Positions 18,100 to 52,863 of a stretch of DNA of 64,000 nt are shown one piece after another. Source of the DNA: Patulibacter minatonensis DSM 18081 (GTDB taxonomy: Bacteria; Actinomycetota; Thermoleophilia; Solirubrobacterales; Solirubrobacteraceae); NCBI RefSeq assembly GCF_000519325.1, contig NZ_KI912613.1:3091432-3155431 (forward strand), in the 5' to 3' direction. The first letter of the stretch is position 1. Each line of letters begins with the position of its first letter. Under the pieces are notes generated by a model, which ran no database searches, was not told where the DNA came from, and was given only the letters and a program-made list of their open reading frames with translations. The position numbers and the translations under genes are program-made.

Positions 18100-18894
18100 A
18101 TGGCTGACCTCGAGATCAAGAACCTGCACGCCCGAGTCGCGGACGGCGAGAAGCAGATCCTCAAGGGTCTGAACCTGACCGTGAACCGCGGGGAGATCCA
18201 CGCCCTGATGGGCCCGAACGGCTCGGGCAAGTCCACGCTGGCCAACGTGATCATGGGCAACCCGCAGCTCGAGGTCACCGAGGGCCAGATCCTCTGGAAG
18301 GGCGAGGACATCACCGAGCTCGACCCGGACGTCCGGGCGCGCAAGGGCCTCTTCATGGCCTTCCAGTACCCCGTCGCGATCCCGGGCGTGACGATCGTGA
18401 AGTACCTGCGGATGGTCCTGAACGCGCACCGCGAGGAGCGCGGCGAGTCCGAGATCAAGCTCAAGGACTTCCGGCAGCTCGTGCAGGGCGAGATGGAGCG
18501 CGTCAACGTGCCGAAGGAGTTCGGCTCGCGCTACCTCAACGACGGGTTCTCCGGTGGCGAGAAGAAGCGCCTCGAGATGCTCCAGCTCGCCCTGCAGCGG
18601 CCCGAGGTGGCGATCCTCGACGAGACCGACTCCGGCCTCGACGTCGACGCGCTGAACATCGTGTCGCAGGCGGTCAACGCGGTGAAGGCGGAGTCCGAGC
18701 TCGGCGCGCTGATCATCACGCACTACCAGCGGATCCTGCACCTGATCAAGCCGGACCGCGTGTCGATCCTCGTCGACGGCCGGATCGTCAAGGAGGGCGG
18801 CCCCGAGCTCGTCGAGCAGATCGAGACCGAGGGCTACAAGGCCATCCGCGCCGAGGCCGAGGCGCTGGGCGCCGACGTCTCGACCGTCGCCTGA
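18100..18894 (+). CDS. sufC: SUF Fe-S assembly ATPase SufC
   Basis: ABC-type ATPase of 264 aa that powers the SufBCD scaffold. Walker A GPNGSGKST lies at about 37-45, the signature FSGGEKKR at about 150, and the Walker B/D-loop region VAILDETDSGLDVDAL at about 168-183, the form specific to SufC. GGAAGA upstream may act as RBS. It is unusual in standing apart from sufB and sufD, which lie 15 kb downstream. The upstream rrf2 gene is the likely regulator. Two hairpin repeats follow and probably terminate the transcript. Confidence 0.95.
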   Translation: MADLEIKNLHARVADGEKQILKGLNLTVNRGEIHALMGPNGSGKSTLANVIMGNPQLEVTEGQILWKGEDITELDPDVRARKGLFMAFQYPVAIPGVTIVKYLRMVLNAHREERGESEIKLKDFRQLVQGEMERVNVPKEFGSRYLNDGFSGGEKKRLEMLQLALQRPEVAILDETDSGLDVDALNIVSQAVNAVKAESELGALIITHYQRILHLIKPDRVSILVDGRIVKEGGPELVEQIETEGYKAIRAEAEALGADVSTVA

Positions 18895-18906
18895 TCCACG
18901 CCTGAC

Positions 18907-19021
18907 CTGTGAGCCCCGCCCCGCGACGCTCGGGGTGGGGCCCGTACTCCCTACGGGTGCCCCGAGCCCGGTCGTCGTCCTGTGAGACCCGCCCCGCGAC
19001 GCTCGGGGTGGGGCCCGTACT
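18907..19021 (+). repeat. Two 42-base direct repeats, each a terminator-like hairpin
   Basis: 18907-18948 and 18980-19021 are identical but for one base. Each holds CCCCG or similar paired with CGGGGTGGGG around a CGACGCT loop and ends in GGGCCCGTACT. They lie between sufC and uppP. The TAC of the second copy is also the start of the uppP -10 (TACTGT, 19018-19023). The hairpin at 63240-63261 has a related stem and the same GACGCT loop. Confidence 0.85.
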
Positions 19022-19030
19022 GTTCCCCGG

Positions 19031-19879
19031 GTGACCACCGGGATGCACACGTGGGAAGCCGCGATCCTCGGGGCGGTCGAGGGGCTCACCGAGTTCCTCC
19101 CCGTCTCCTCGACCGGGCATCTCACGATCACCGAGAAGCTCATGGGCTACTCGATCGACGACCCGGACGTCACGGCGTTCACGGCGATCATCCAGATCGG
19201 CGCGGTGCTGGCGACGGTGATCTACCTCCGCGCCGACATCATCCGGCTGCTCTCCGCGTTCTTCCGCGGCGTCGCGAGCCCCGAGCAGCGGCAGACGCGC
19301 GACTTCCGGTTCGCGATCTACGTCCTGGCCGGCTCGATCCCGATCGGGATCATCGGCCTGGCGTTCAAGGACCAGATCGAGACGACCCTGCGCTCCCTGT
19401 GGTTCGTCGGCTTCGCCCTGATCCTCTTCTCGGGCGTCATGTACTGGGCCGACAAGGTCGGCACCCAGCGTCGTCAGGAGGGCGACATCACCCTGCGCGA
19501 CACGCTGACCATCGGCATCGCCCAGTGCCTCGCGCTGATTCCGGGCATCTCCCGCTCCGGCGCCACGATGTCGACCGGCCTGCTGCTCGGCATCGACCGG
19601 GTCGCCGTCACGAAGCTCTCGTTCTTCCTCGCGATCCCTGCGCTGGCCGGCGCGACGGTCCTCCAGTCGGTGTCGGAGTTCGACAACATCGCGGACGGCG
19701 TCGGCTGGGGTCCGACGCTCCTGGCCACGGCGGTCTCGTTCGTCGTCGGCTACGCGGCGGTCGCCTGGCTCCTGAAGTTCATCTCCAGCCACGGGCTGGG
19801 CATCTTCATCAAGTACCGCGTCGCGCTCGGCACCGTCGTGCTGATCCTGGTCGGCACCGGGGCGCTCAGCCCGACCTGA
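19031..19879 (+). CDS. uppP: Undecaprenyl-diphosphatase UppP (BacA family)
   Basis: Integral membrane phosphatase of 282 aa that recycles undecaprenyl pyrophosphate for cell-wall synthesis; it also confers bacitracin tolerance. Both catalytic signatures are present: EGLTEFLPVSSTGHL (residues 14-28) and PGISRSGATM. About eight hydrophobic helices are visible. GTG at 19031 lies 7 bases after TACTGT and no Shine-Dalgarno sequence is seen, so the transcript is likely leaderless. The promoter is embedded in the end of the second sufC hairpin repeat. Length fits the family. Confidence 0.95.
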   Translation: MTTGMHTWEAAILGAVEGLTEFLPVSSTGHLTITEKLMGYSIDDPDVTAFTAIIQIGAVLATVIYLRADIIRLLSAFFRGVASPEQRQTRDFRFAIYVLAGSIPIGIIGLAFKDQIETTLRSLWFVGFALILFSGVMYWADKVGTQRRQEGDITLRDTLTIGIAQCLALIPGISRSGATMSTGLLLGIDRVAVTKLSFFLAIPALAGATVLQSVSEFDNIADGVGWGPTLLATAVSFVVGYAAVAWLLKFISSHGLGIFIKYRVALGTVVLILVGTGALSPT

Positions 19880-48869: not shown

Positions 48870-49562
48870 TCAGGCGTTCCAGCGCACGAGCGCCGGCCGG
48901 CCGCGCTCGGCGCCGAGCACCGAGACCGTCGCCGTGCCGAGGACGAGGTGCGCGCCGAACCCGGCCGGCTGCTGCAGCCACCGCGCGGCGAGGATCCGCA
49001 GCAGGTGCCCGTGTGCGACGACGAGCACCGCGGCGCCCGGCGTGTCGTGCGCCTGTCGATCCTCGCCGGCGGTCGCCCGACGTCCCGCGGCCACCGCGCG
49101 GACGATCGCGCGGTCCGCCCGCGTGCCGACCTCGTTGATCGTCTCCGCGCCGTCGACGACGCTCGTCCACGAGTTCCACCCGGGGTCGGTCTCGCGCATC
49201 GCCGCGGTGGTGATCCCCTCGGCCGCGCCGTAGTCGCGCTCCTGCAGGTCGTCGTCGAGCTGCGCCACCGACCCCGGCAGCGCGAGCTCCAGCGTCTCGC
49301 GGGCCCGCGACAGCGGGGAGCACCGGATCGCCGCGAAGCGCTGCGAGCCGAGGTGCTCGCCGAGCGCCGCCGCCTGCTCGCGGCCCTTCGCCGTCAAGGG
49401 CAGATCGGTGCGGCCGGTGTGCCGACCGTCGCGGGCCCACTCGGTCTCGCCGTGGCGGACGAGCCAGAGCCGGACCGTGGTGGCCTCGGCCGAGCCCGCC
49501 TCGGCGCCGGGGGTACCGTCCGGACCCGGGGCGTGCGGCGGCGGAACCTGCGGTGCCGACAT
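48870..49562 (-). CDS. Histidine phosphatase family protein (phosphoglycerate-mutase-like)
   Basis: A 230-aa phosphatase with the RHGETEW catalytic motif at about residue 36, RTDLPLTAKGREQA, CSPLSRARET, ERDYGAAEG and the second catalytic His in VVAHGHLLR. The family includes sugar-phosphate phosphatases and cofactor-dependent mutases; substrate is uncertain. A Pro/Ala-rich segment of about 27 residues precedes the domain. Its ATG shares one base with the TGA of a preceding 18-codon ORF, so it is probably translated by coupling at the end of the carbohydrate operon. Confidence 0.85.
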   Translation of the reverse strand: MSAPQVPPPHAPGPDGTPGAEAGSAEATTVRLWLVRHGETEWARDGRHTGRTDLPLTAKGREQAAALGEHLGSQRFAAIRCSPLSRARETLELALPGSVAQLDDDLQERDYGAAEGITTAAMRETDPGWNSWTSVVDGAETINEVGTRADRAIVRAVAAGRRATAGEDRQAHDTPGAAVLVVAHGHLLRILAARWLQQPAGFGAHLVLGTATVSVLGAERGRPALVRWNA

Positions 49563-49618
49563 CAGACGCCGGAGCCCGTCGACGCCGCACCGCGGCGTGC
49601 TGCCGTCGACCTCGACAT
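49562..49618 (-). CDS. Candidate 18-aa micro-ORF 2 between pgl and the phosphatase
   Basis: MSRSTAARRGAASTGSGV is encoded by 18 codons plus TGA. Its ATG shares a base with the stop of micro-ORF 1 and its TGA shares a base with the phosphatase ATG (TGATG at both ends). The DNA is an imperfect copy of the previous 56 bases (42 of 56 identical by my count). It is probably a coupling spacer or a translated regulatory peptide. Translation is unproven. Confidence 0.4.
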   Translation of the reverse strand: MSRSTAARRGAASTGSGV

Positions 49619-49674
49619 CAGGCGCCCGCGCCCGGCGTCGCCGCTCCGAGGGGTGCTGCCTCCCGCACCGACAT
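49618..49674 (-). CDS. Candidate 18-aa micro-ORF 1 after pgl
   Basis: MSVREAAPLGAATPGAGA starts on the A shared with the pgl TGA and ends in TGATG with micro-ORF 2. It is the first of two tandem 56-base units. The Ala/Gly-rich peptide has no known relatives that I recognise. Confidence 0.4.
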   Translation of the reverse strand: MSVREAAPLGAATPGAGA

Positions 49675-50417
49675 CAGTCCGTGAACGCCCCGTCCGACCT
49701 GGCCTCCGCGAGCGCGGCCTCGTCGGCGATCACGGTCAGCGTCTCCGGCCGCAGCAGGCTGGCGGGGGCGTCGGGACCGACGGTGCGCAGGGTGCGCGAC
49801 AGGGCCTCGGCCTTGCCCTCGCCGGTCACGAGCAGCAGGATCCGTCCCGCGGCGCGCAGGGCCGGCACCGTCAGCGACACGCGCTCCGGCGGCGGCTTCT
49901 TCATGTCGAGGACCGCGACGGTGACGCCGTCGGCCTCGAGCGACGGGTGACCGGGCTCGAGCGACGCGGTGTGGCCGTCCTCGCCGAGGCCGAGCAGGAC
50001 GACGTCGAGCGGGGCGGCGCCGAGCTCGTTGGCGTACGCGCGGGCGCGGTCGCCGGGGGAGCCGTTCTCGTCCAGCCGGTGCAGGACGTGCCCGCGGTCG
50101 GTGCCGAGGGCCTCGTCGATCAGCCGCGCGTTGGAGTCGTCGTCGCCGTACGGGACGCACCGCTCGTCGGCGAGGAAGACGTCGACCGACGGCCAGTCGT
50201 CGATCAGCGTCGCCAGGCGCTCGTAGGCGCCGACGGGCGTGCCGCCGCCGGACAGCGCGAGCCGCACGCGCGCCGCGGCCTCCGCCCGGACCGCGGTGAT
50301 CGCGTCCGACAGCGCCCGCGCCGTCACGTCCTTCGCGGCCTCGGCGTCGGCGACCGGGACGACCCGGAACCCGTTCTGCGCGGTCAGGTCGGTCGGACGG
50401 GGCGCGGCGTCGGCCAT
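49674..50417 (-). CDS. pgl: 6-phosphogluconolactonase
   Basis: A 247-aa hydrolase of 6-phosphogluconolactone, second step of the oxidative pentose phosphate pathway. LSGGGTPVGAYERL, FLADERCVPYGDDDSN and GLGEDGHTASLEPG are the family motifs. The ATG at 50417 shares a base with the TGA of a 14-codon ORF upstream (TGATG). GAGG lies about 9 bases upstream and may help. The TGA is again followed by overlapping micro-ORFs. It is the only pentose phosphate enzyme after the phosphorylase module. Confidence 0.93.
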   Translation of the reverse strand: MADAAPRPTDLTAQNGFRVVPVADAEAAKDVTARALSDAITAVRAEAAARVRLALSGGGTPVGAYERLATLIDDWPSVDVFLADERCVPYGDDDSNARLIDEALGTDRGHVLHRLDENGSPGDRARAYANELGAAPLDVVLLGLGEDGHTASLEPGHPSLEADGVTVAVLDMKKPPPERVSLTVPALRAAGRILLLVTGEGKAEALSRTLRTVGPDAPASLLRPETLTVIADEAALAEARSDGAFTD

Positions 50418-50461
50418 CAGCGGGCCTCGAGAATCGTCGGGAAGATCGACATACGTCCCAT
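50417..50461 (-). CDS. Candidate 14-aa leader ORF before pgl
   Basis: MGRMSIFPTILEAR begins 11 bases after the GH65 stop and ends in TGATG with the pgl start. GGGTAGGG before the ATG might act as a weak RBS. It may carry ribosomes from the phosphorylase gene to pgl. Expression is unproven. Confidence 0.3.
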   Translation of the reverse strand: MGRMSIFPTILEAR

Positions 50462-50472
50462 CCCTACCCGGT

Positions 50473-52863
50473 TCACAGCGGCTGACGGTGCGATCGGCGG
50501 TGCGGCGTGCGGCCGGCCGGCTGCACCGGGAGGATCGGCGGATCGAGGTGCACCAGGGGACGGACGACCGGCACGCCGGCGACGAGCTCGAGCTCCTCGT
50601 CCTCGTGCACGATGGTGACCGGGGTGAGACCCGACTCGTCGCCTCCGTCCTCCACGGAGGTGAGCGAATACGTCGCGCGTCCCGGTTCGATGACGACACG
50701 GATGCGCTGACCGCGGAAGATGACCGGGAACGCGACCCGGGTGAGGCCGTCCGGAATGCGGGGCCGGAAGGCCAGACGGCCCCCGATGTCCCGGAACCCG
50801 CCGAGGCCGAACATCACGGCGCCGAGCACTCCGCCGAGGGAGGCGATGTGCAGGCCCTCCGCGGCGTCGCCCTTGAGGTCGTGGAGGTCGGTGAACGCCC
50901 CCTCCGCCAGGTAGTCGTAGGCGAGGTCGACGTGCCCGACCTCCGCCGCGACGATCGACTGGACGCCGGCGGAGAGCGAAGAGTCGCGGACGGTCAGGCC
51001 CTCGTAGTAGGCGAAGTTCTGCTCCTTCTCTTCCGCGGTGAAGACGTCGCCGCGGACGAACAACGCCATCACGAGGTCGGGCTGCTTGACGACCTGCTTG
51101 CGGTAGAGCTGGAAGTACGGGAAGTGCAGGAGGAGCGGGTAGCGCTCCTGGTCCGTCCCCTCGAAGTCCCAGCGCTCCTGCAACAGGAAGTCCTGGTCCT
51201 GCGGGTGGATGCCCAGCCGCTCGTCGAACGGCACGTGCATCATCGCCGCGGCGACGCGCCAGCTCGCGACCTCCTCCGGGTTGACCCCGAGGCTGTGGGA
51301 CACGTCGAGGTGCGCCTCCGCCGCGTCGGCCGCGGCCGTGAGGTTCAGCTGCGCCATCAGGTTCGTGTAGACGTTGTTGTTGACGATCGCGGTGTACTCG
51401 TCCGGACCCGTCACGCCATCGATGCGAAACTCGCCGTCCGTACCGTGGTGGCCGAGACTCGACCAGAGCCGGGCCGTCTCGACGAGGAGCTCGAGTCCGT
51501 GGGCCCGCTCGAAGGCCACGTCGCCCGTCGCGAACACGTAGCGCTGGACGGCGTGGGCGATGCTGGCGTTGACGTGGAAGGCGGCGATGCCGGCCGGCCA
51601 GTACCCGGAACACTCCTCGCCATGGATCGTGCGCCACGGGAACGCGGCGCCCCGCAGCCCGAGCTGCGCGGCGCGGTCCCGCGCCTGCCGCAGCGTCGCG
51701 GCCCGCCACATCAGCTGATCACGCACCAGTGCGGGCTTCGTGTACGTCAGCGGCGGGAGCATGAAGCTCTCGGTGTCCCAGAAGGCATGCCCGTCGTACC
51801 CGGTCCCGGTCAGACCCTTCGCGCCGACGGCGCGCGTCTCGGCGCGCGCGCTGGCCTGGAGGAGCTGGTACTTCGCGAAGCGGATCGCCTGTTGGAGCTC
51901 GGGATCGCCGTCGATCTGGAAGTCTGCGACACGCCAGTACCGGTCGAGGTAGTCCCGTTGCGCCGCCGCCAGGCCCGCGAATCCTGCGCCGATGGCGTTC
52001 TCCAGGCTCGCGTCCACCTGGTCCCGCAGCCAGTCCATCGACTGTCGGCCCGACCAGTGGTACGCCAGGAACTTGACGATCCGCAACGGCTCGCCGGGCT
52101 TCAGGAGCGCCGAGATCGTCACGCGCCCGAGGTCCTCGTCGATCTGCAGCAGCGTCTTCGGCGTGCCGTACGTCCGGTCGATGACGTGGTCCATGCCGGC
52201 CGCGAGTGCCAGTCCGGACCGACGGGTGCGGTGCCCGAGGACCACGCGTAGGTCGTGCCCCGTGTGCAGTTCGCTCTCGAGGACGGTGCCGAGAGCCGCG
52301 GCCTTCCGGGGGTCCATCGTCTCTGCCTCCTGGACCTGGTTGGCCAGGAGGTTCGACTGGAGGGCGATCCGCACATCCTCGTCGACGGCCTCGACCTCGT
52401 ACTCGATGGCCGCGACGCTCCGTTGGGTGAAGGACACGAGCCGCCGGCTCTTCACCCGGACCGACCGCCCCGCCTGCGACCGCCACGTGACGTTGCGCTC
52501 GAGGATGCCCGTGCGGAAGTCGAGGAACCGGTCGTGCTGCTGCAGCCACCCGCGGTGGACGTCGAACGGCTCGTCCTCGACGAGGAGGCGGATCAGCTTG
52601 CCGTCCGTCACGTTGATGATCGACTGGCCGTCCTCCGCGAAGCCGAAGCCGCGCTCGCCGTAGCTCAGGGGGTACAGCTCGTGGAAGCCGCCCAGGTAGG
52701 TGCCGGACTGCCCGCGGGGCTCACCTTCGTCCAGATTGCCACGCAGGCCCAGATGTCCGTTCGACAGCGCGAAGATCGACTCCATCGCCGGCAGACGGTC
52801 GAGGTCGAGTCCGTGCTCCTGGATGCCCCAGGGCTCGAGAAGGGAGTGCTGGTGATCGGTCAC
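50473..52863 (-). CDS. GH65 disaccharide phosphorylase/hydrolase
   Basis: A 796-aa glycoside hydrolase family 65 enzyme. The N-terminal beta-sandwich (FALSNGHLGLRGNLDEGEP) is followed by an (alpha/alpha)6 barrel with FWDTESFMLPPL and the general acid E489 in GVTGPDEYTA, and then a beta-domain. Family members phosphorolyse maltose, trehalose, kojibiose or nigerose to beta-glucose 1-phosphate and glucose; which one is used here cannot be read from sequence. GTG 52863 overlaps the pgmB stop (GTGA). The paired pgmB would convert the product to glucose 6-phosphate. Confidence 0.92.
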   Translation of the reverse strand: MTDHQHSLLEPWGIQEHGLDLDRLPAMESIFALSNGHLGLRGNLDEGEPRGQSGTYLGGFHELYPLSYGERGFGFAEDGQSIINVTDGKLIRLLVEDEPFDVHRGWLQQHDRFLDFRTGILERNVTWRSQAGRSVRVKSRRLVSFTQRSVAAIEYEVEAVDEDVRIALQSNLLANQVQEAETMDPRKAAALGTVLESELHTGHDLRVVLGHRTRRSGLALAAGMDHVIDRTYGTPKTLLQIDEDLGRVTISALLKPGEPLRIVKFLAYHWSGRQSMDWLRDQVDASLENAIGAGFAGLAAAQRDYLDRYWRVADFQIDGDPELQQAIRFAKYQLLQASARAETRAVGAKGLTGTGYDGHAFWDTESFMLPPLTYTKPALVRDQLMWRAATLRQARDRAAQLGLRGAAFPWRTIHGEECSGYWPAGIAAFHVNASIAHAVQRYVFATGDVAFERAHGLELLVETARLWSSLGHHGTDGEFRIDGVTGPDEYTAIVNNNVYTNLMAQLNLTAAADAAEAHLDVSHSLGVNPEEVASWRVAAAMMHVPFDERLGIHPQDQDFLLQERWDFEGTDQERYPLLLHFPYFQLYRKQVVKQPDLVMALFVRGDVFTAEEKEQNFAYYEGLTVRDSSLSAGVQSIVAAEVGHVDLAYDYLAEGAFTDLHDLKGDAAEGLHIASLGGVLGAVMFGLGGFRDIGGRLAFRPRIPDGLTRVAFPVIFRGQRIRVVIEPGRATYSLTSVEDGGDESGLTPVTIVHEDEELELVAGVPVVRPLVHLDPPILPVQPAGRTPHRRSHRQPL

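What the first reader, a model, noticed from the sequence alone, without database searches (positions are those of the whole stretch)
49562..49674. Two tandem 56-base units form a relay of 18-codon ORFs between pgl and a phosphatase
On the minus strand pgl ends TGATG, an 18-codon ORF follows and ends TGATG, a second 18-codon ORF follows and ends TGATG with the phosphatase ATG. Both units are 56 bases and about 75% identical (42 of 56 by my count), so the junction itself seems to have been duplicated with the stop-start overlap preserved. The phosphatase N-terminus (GTPGAEAG) may hold a third remnant. Tandemly duplicated stop-start junctions that keep coupling across four ORFs are new to me.
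Basis: seen in the sequence. Interest (0 to 1): 0.75.

Follow-up and report, generated by a model that had tools for sequence, protein, structure and literature searches.

The report
Duplicated stop-start junction with micro-genes
Between two linked genes of a Patulibacter-group bacterium, a 56-base stop-start segment is tandemly doubled so that two tiny 18-codon reading frames chain the first gene's stop to the next gene's start; one relative in the family has the same design at a different gene pair, and mycobacteria have a known look-alike, so this is a new, locally made variant of a known arrangement rather than a new kind.

Summary
It is the only such chain in the 5.5-Mb genome. In the family the pgl/phosphatase pair is usually directly overlapped: 30 of 42 distinct junctions, including the nearest relatives G007 and G002, have no unit. 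So the units are a lineage-specific insertion. Two parallels were found. G004 has one 59-nt unit at the same junction, with a 28-nt junction repeat (25/28). G036 (another genus) has three 56-nt 18-codon units (54-55/56) between pstS and pstC, and relatives there are directly overlapped. All unit lengths are 2 mod 3, the class that regenerates the overlap. Published data say coupling fails beyond about 20 nt but needs only 15 nt of upstream ORF (PMC10666635), so a ribosome relay is the best reading, though unproven. The peptides are not conserved. The phosphatase 'third remnant' is not supported. Mycobacterial MIRUs (senX3-regX3: 3x77 or 2x77+53 bp) are the known look-alike. This array differs in being local and non-interspersed. 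Verdict: new variant of a known kind.

The parts
49674..50417 (-). pgl, 6-phosphogluconolactonase (upstream gene; stop TGA overlaps the ATG of micro-ORF 1)
   Evidence: TIGR01198 138 bits, above its cut-off of 124; PF01182
49618..49674 (-). micro-ORF 1, 18 codons MSVREAAPLGAATPGAGA* (unit 1)
49562..49618 (-). micro-ORF 2, 18 codons MSRSTAARRGAASTGSGV* (unit 2), 42/56 identical to unit 1
49556..49677 (-). tandem array, period 56, 2.2 copies
   Evidence: 0/500 shuffles reach the unit-unit score
48870..49562 (-). histidine phosphatase (branch 1); ATG at 49562 is the only in-frame ATG/GTG/TTG start before the catalytic core
49672..49676 (-). TGATG junction 1 (pgl / micro-ORF 1)
49616..49620 (-). 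TGATG junction 2 (micro-ORF 1 / micro-ORF 2)
49560..49564 (-). TGATG junction 3 (micro-ORF 2 / phosphatase)

Best explanation
In the ancestor pgl and the phosphatase were directly overlapped (GTGA/ATGA/TGATG) and translationally coupled. In the lineage of this genome a 56-bp, 18-codon spacer bounded by TGATGTCG was inserted and tandemly doubled. Because 56 = 2 mod 3 and the copies carry the TGATG, each copy regenerates a stop-start overlap. A ribosome that ends pgl can then reinitiate on micro-ORF 1, then micro-ORF 2, then the phosphatase, never having to cross a gap. The peptides are by-products; the micro-ORFs act as carriers that keep (and probably lower somewhat) coupled phosphatase synthesis. 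Shown: the tandem repeat, the overlaps, the relatives without units, the lack of an alternative phosphatase start, and parallel cases in G004 and G036. Inferred: actual translation, the relay, and its effect on yield.
For: Direct -4 or -1 overlap in 30 of 42 distinct family junctions (tally), including both closest relatives. On a pgl+phosphatase tree G000 groups with G007/G002 (100/99) and G004 lies outside. The phosphatase frame has only one usable start, ATG 49562, and no strong Shine-Dalgarno before it (-2.6 kcal/mol duplex). Published: gaps of about 20 nt nearly abolish coupling, while the last 15 nt of an upstream ORF suffice for reinitiation (PMC10666635), so a 112-nt insert should uncouple the genes unless relayed. 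Parallel cases have unit lengths in the same class: G004 59 nt, G036 3 x 56 nt. The units have diverged less (75% identical) than four-fold sites between G000 and G007 (55-65% identical), so they fit a duplication within this lineage. Peptides are not conserved: of 14 differences 6, 6 and 2 fall at codon positions 1, 2 and 3, with 9 of 10 changed codons nonsynonymous. No unusual RNA fold (z = +1.25) and no Rfam family at its curated threshold.
Against: No transcript, ribosome or protein data. Single micro-ORF relays occur at chance level in this genome (19 vs 16.9 expected). The genome has many intergenic 44-99-bp tandem arrays (about 26 in 1.255 Mb), so the array could be neutral. Only two independent unit lengths at this junction (56, 59) and one at pstS-pstC (56) support the 2-mod-3 rule. 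Most TGATG-56 arrays elsewhere (G036 L298, G150, G200, G316, G541) and one 59-nt array (G155) do not link coupled genes. The origin of the first 56-bp unit is unknown.
Confidence: 0.6

Rival explanations
1. Neutral tandem repeat: an intergenic duplication of the sort common in this genome that happens to sit at this junction; the TGATG overlaps are inherited by copying and do nothing special; the phosphatase is made by weak independent initiation.
For: Many intergenic tandem arrays in the same genome; single relays occur at chance; copying a TGATG-bounded 56-bp piece keeps the overlap automatically.
Against: It is the only array in a short co-directional gap in the sample (111 bp; others at least 151) and is unrelated to the other arrays. 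Parallel relays in G004 and G036 with lengths 2 mod 3 and direct overlap in relatives. No strong SD before the phosphatase.
Confidence: 0.26
2. Expression-tuning device: the number of units sets how many reinitiation steps a ribosome must survive, so unit number is a dial on phosphatase (or PstC) level relative to the upstream gene.
For: Unit number is 0, 1, 2 or 3 in different genomes and loci. In M. tuberculosis the length of an intercistronic repeat region (rnc-fpg1) correlates with expression (PMC2734929). G036 units are nearly identical, as expected of a young, copy-variable array.
Against: No expression data; no population-level variation in copy number could be examined here.
Confidence: 0.09
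3. MIRU-like mobile or interspersed element inserted at the junction.
For: Same architecture as MIRUs: small ORF, overlap with flanking genes, tandem copies (PMC12548453, PMC4213456).
Against: No other copy of the unit in its genome beyond chance; no homologous copy in 7 congeners (chance-level hits only); the G036 unit is also single-locus.
Confidence: 0.03
4. The micro-ORFs encode functional small peptides.
For: Both frames are open; in G036 three copies encode nearly the same peptide MTQTEKMTVVEVIAEIGS.
Against: In the window 10 of 18 codons differ, 9 nonsynonymously, with few third-position changes; no relative has the peptides; the G036 copies are simply young.
Confidence: 0.02

Closest known systems
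Mycobacterial interspersed repetitive units (MIRUs), especially senX3-regX3 (Supply et al. 1997; cited in PMC12548453, PMC4213456)
   Same: Tandem short units between two genes of an operon; each unit has a small ORF coupled by stop-start overlap to the neighbouring gene; lengths 77 and 53 bp are 2 mod 3, like 56 and 59 here; copy number varies.
   Different: MIRUs are one sequence family scattered over about 41 places in the M. tuberculosis chromosome (PMC2734929) and appear mobile. The units here are found at one locus only, and the G000, G004 and G036 units are unrelated to one another in sequence; in G004 and G036 they carry copies of their own upstream gene's 3' end.
Termination-reinitiation at overlapping gene pairs (ATGA/TGATG; Huber et al. 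2019, 2023: PMC6728339, PMC10666635)
   Same: The same overlaps and the presumed same ribosome mechanism.
   Different: There the two functional genes overlap directly; here two non-conserved micro-ORFs are interposed and the overlap is multiplied.
Short upstream ORFs that deliver ribosomes to a coupled gene (for example the iraD uORF, PMC5574718; review PMC12548453)
   Same: A short ORF whose role may be only to bring ribosomes to the next start.
   Different: Those are single leader ORFs; here there are two tandem copies inside an operon, bridging a previously direct overlap.
rnc-fpg1 intercistronic variable repeats of M. tuberculosis (VNTR3239, PMC2734929)
   Same: Repeats invade a junction that is only a few bp long in relatives.
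   Different: Complex 55/79-bp repeats; no stop-start chain is reported in the passages read.

Membership tests
MIRU (mycobacterial interspersed repetitive unit) | Tandem short units in an intercistronic region, each with an ORF overlapping the flanking start/stop codons | tested here: met
MIRU (mycobacterial interspersed repetitive unit) | Interspersed: homologous copies at many loci of the genome | tested here: not met
   Own-genome search finds only chance-level partial matches; congeners likewise; G036 unit single-locus
MIRU (mycobacterial interspersed repetitive unit) | Sequence homology to the MIRU consensus | not tested
   MIRU consensus not retrieved; the G000 and G004 units share no sequence
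Overlap-coupled gene pair (termination-reinitiation) | -1 or -4 nt overlap at each junction | tested here: met
   TGATG at all three junctions
Overlap-coupled gene pair (termination-reinitiation) | Downstream translation depends on upstream translation | not testable with these tools
   needs reporter or ribosome profiling
Tandem junction duplication | Two adjacent homologous units spanning the stop-start overlap | tested here: met
   42/56, 0/500 shuffles
Tandem junction duplication | Unit contains sequence of the flanking genes | tested here: inconclusive
   G000: only TGATGTCG(G) shared, no similarity to pgl tail or phosphatase N-terminus. G004 and G036: met

The most novel reading that the evidence does not exclude
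Coupled stop-start junctions are self-propagating sites: local tandem duplications of length 2 mod 3 repeatedly convert a direct overlap into a chain of micro-ORFs whose copy number can grow without breaking coupling. This would make unit number an evolvable dial on operon stoichiometry, with MIRUs being the instance that became mobile.
Probability: 0.25. Interest if true: 0.7.

Novelty: new variant of a known kind. Interest (0 to 1): 0.52.

Why it matters
If the relay works, it shows how DNA can be inserted into a coupled junction without uncoupling the genes, using micro-ORFs whose sequence is free but whose length class is fixed. The window array (2 units), G004 (1 unit) and G036 pstS-pstC (3 units), all with relatives that have none, form a natural series for testing how many successive reinitiations a bacterial ribosome can make and whether MIRU-like arrays begin as local junction duplications.

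Tried and rejected
Third copy in the phosphatase N-terminus: rejected. MIRU-like interspersed element: rejected for lack of dispersed copies. RNA structure as the conserved feature: no unusual stability, no Rfam family at its curated threshold. Conserved peptide: rejected. Shared origin of the G000 and G004 units: no sequence similarity, different length and overlap type; a common origin with loss in G007/G002 is not strictly excluded. Single micro-ORF relays as a general feature of this genome: at chance level, so the 19-codon relay between the GH65 gene and pgl and the 15-codon one in G154 (L144) were not counted as evidence. TGATG-56 or TGATG-59 arrays in G036 (L298), G150, G200, G316, G541, G155: intergenic or antisense, not relays; G527 is a shorter minisatellite. 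A named-genome scan gave two congeners (one labelled Patulibacter sp.) plus distant pgl genes of no use. Apparent 56-bp repeats at other sites were runs of masked N.

Full report
What is there. The window lies in a 5.52-Mb single-contig genome; the nearest named congener in a public scan is labelled Patulibacter sp.. On the minus strand a GH65-family gene (52863-50473), pgl (50417-49674, TIGR01198) and a branch-1 histidine phosphatase (49562-48870, PF00300) follow one another. Between pgl and the phosphatase lie two 18-codon ORFs, and each of the three junctions reads TGATG. Tandem Repeats Finder sees the same array, and no dinucleotide shuffle reaches the alignment score. The phosphatase N-terminus is not a third copy: beyond TGATGTCG(G) the similarity is at shuffle level.

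Chance. In the whole genome only this place has three TGATG 40-70 bp apart with two open in-frame micro-ORFs. In 1.255 Mb with a simple codon-usage gene call, 154 of 685 same-strand gene pairs overlap directly and 19 show a micro-ORF relay of any kind, against 16.9 expected when intergenic DNA is shuffled. So single relays, which need only NTGA overlaps, are background. An all-TGATG relay was seen once (this one) against 0.01 expected. The array is therefore best seen as one duplication event, not several coincidences.

Relatives. Across the family the pgl-phosphatase pair is widespread; 42 distinct junctions were read and by my tally 30 are direct -4 or -1 overlaps. The closest congeners, G007 and G002 (about 79% identical Pgl), have GTGA with no insert. 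G005 and G001 are also direct. G004 has one 59-nt unit: pgl GTGA, 20 codons, then a second GTGA at the phosphatase; the two junctions share 28 nt at 25/28, including 11 nt of the pgl end, and no shuffle reaches this. The tree ((G000,(G007,G002)),G004) has support of 100/99 and 95/95. The G000 and G004 units share no sequence, so two independent gains are the simpler reading, though one gain plus loss in G007/G002 is not excluded. The units are 75% identical to each other, against 55-65% identity at four-fold sites between G000 and G007, which fits an origin within the G000 lineage.

A second locus with the same design. A scan of 146 family genomes for three TGATG exactly 56 apart gave, besides the window, a complete G000-like relay in G036: pstS, then three 56-nt units (MTQTEKMTVVEVIAEIGS*, 54-55/56 identical), then pstC, with TGATG at all four junctions. 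Its relatives G062 and G065 have a direct pstS/pstC TGATG, and G064 and G066 have near-adjacent variants. The last 16 nt of the G036 unit before TGA match the G062 pstS tail at 15/16, while 854 control gene tails reach at most 12. So there the junction, including the end of the upstream gene, was copied. That unit also has no other copy in its genus. The names pstS and pstC rest on my reading of the translations; no family search was run on them. Other TGATG-56 arrays (L296, L298, L308-L310) and one TGATG-59 array (L313) are intergenic or antisense and do not link coupled genes, so such periodic arrays are not by themselves relays.

How it most likely works. Published reporter work finds that intergenic distances near 20 nt almost abolish coupling, while 15 nt of upstream ORF are enough for reinitiation (PMC10666635). 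A 112-nt insert would therefore be expected to uncouple the phosphatase unless ribosomes are handed on by the micro-ORFs. The phosphatase frame offers only ATG 49562 as a start before its core, and the region before it pairs poorly with the anti-Shine-Dalgarno sequence. A duplicated piece keeps the overlap exactly when its length is 2 mod 3: 56, 59 and 56 here, and 77 and 53 in senX3-regX3. The relay itself is inferred. The peptides show no sign of selection: 14 differences, 6/6/2 by codon position, 9 of 10 changed codons nonsynonymous. RNA structure is unremarkable.

Known relatives. MIRUs of mycobacteria are described as short repeats inserted at start codons, with an ORF coupled to the gene at -4 nt (PMC12548453); senX3-regX3 holds three 77-bp units in H37Rv, or two 77-bp plus one 53-bp in CDC1551 (PMC4213456). 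The arrangement works like these. It is not a MIRU by the defining test of interspersion, which was tested and not met. No paper found in seven searches describes local duplication of a coupled junction into a micro-ORF chain; the library is open-access only.

Limits. No expression data; eight congeners were held, one without the phosphatase (G003) and one with only a fragment (G006); the relay survey used a home-made gene call on 1.255 Mb; only periods 56 and 59 were scanned across genomes. The same genome has many intergenic tandem arrays, which keeps the neutral reading alive at about one in four.

Noticed in passing
window 50417-50476 (-): The GH65 gene stop (GTGA) and the pgl start (TGATG) are also linked by a 19-codon ORF, again with 56 nt between the junctions; no sequence similarity to the 56-bp units, and such relays occur at chance in this genome.
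   Followed up: partly
L295:343-2681 (genome G036): pstS and pstC are joined by three nearly identical 56-nt units, each an 18-codon ORF bounded by TGATG; relatives have a direct overlap.
   Followed up: yes
L012 (genome G004), pgl-phosphatase junction: One 59-nt unit with GTGA at both ends and a 28-nt junction repeat (25/28) that includes the pgl 3' end; the rest of the unit is near background similarity.
   Followed up: yes
window 18888-19039 and about 25 further sites in L230-L289: This genome is rich in intergenic tandem arrays of 2-3 copies with periods of 44-99 bp; several (55, 61, 70-71, 72-74 bp) belong to small interspersed families, reminiscent of mycobacterial minisatellites.
   Followed up: partly
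L310 (genome G316) and L309 (genome G541): 56-bp arrays whose units each carry an 18-codon ORF bounded by TGATG, lying in intergenic regions; in L310 just upstream of what looks like the SRP RNA gene.
   Followed up: partly
L144 (genome G154), pgl-phosphatase junction: pgl GTGA, a 15-codon ORF, then TGATG at the phosphatase: a single relay without visible repeat, probably chance.
   Followed up: no
L301 (genome G066), pstS-pstC junction: pstS ends TAA followed by GTGAGCTGATG, a two-codon ORF that ends in the TGATG of pstC: a minimal relay after a stop-codon shift.
   Followed up: no
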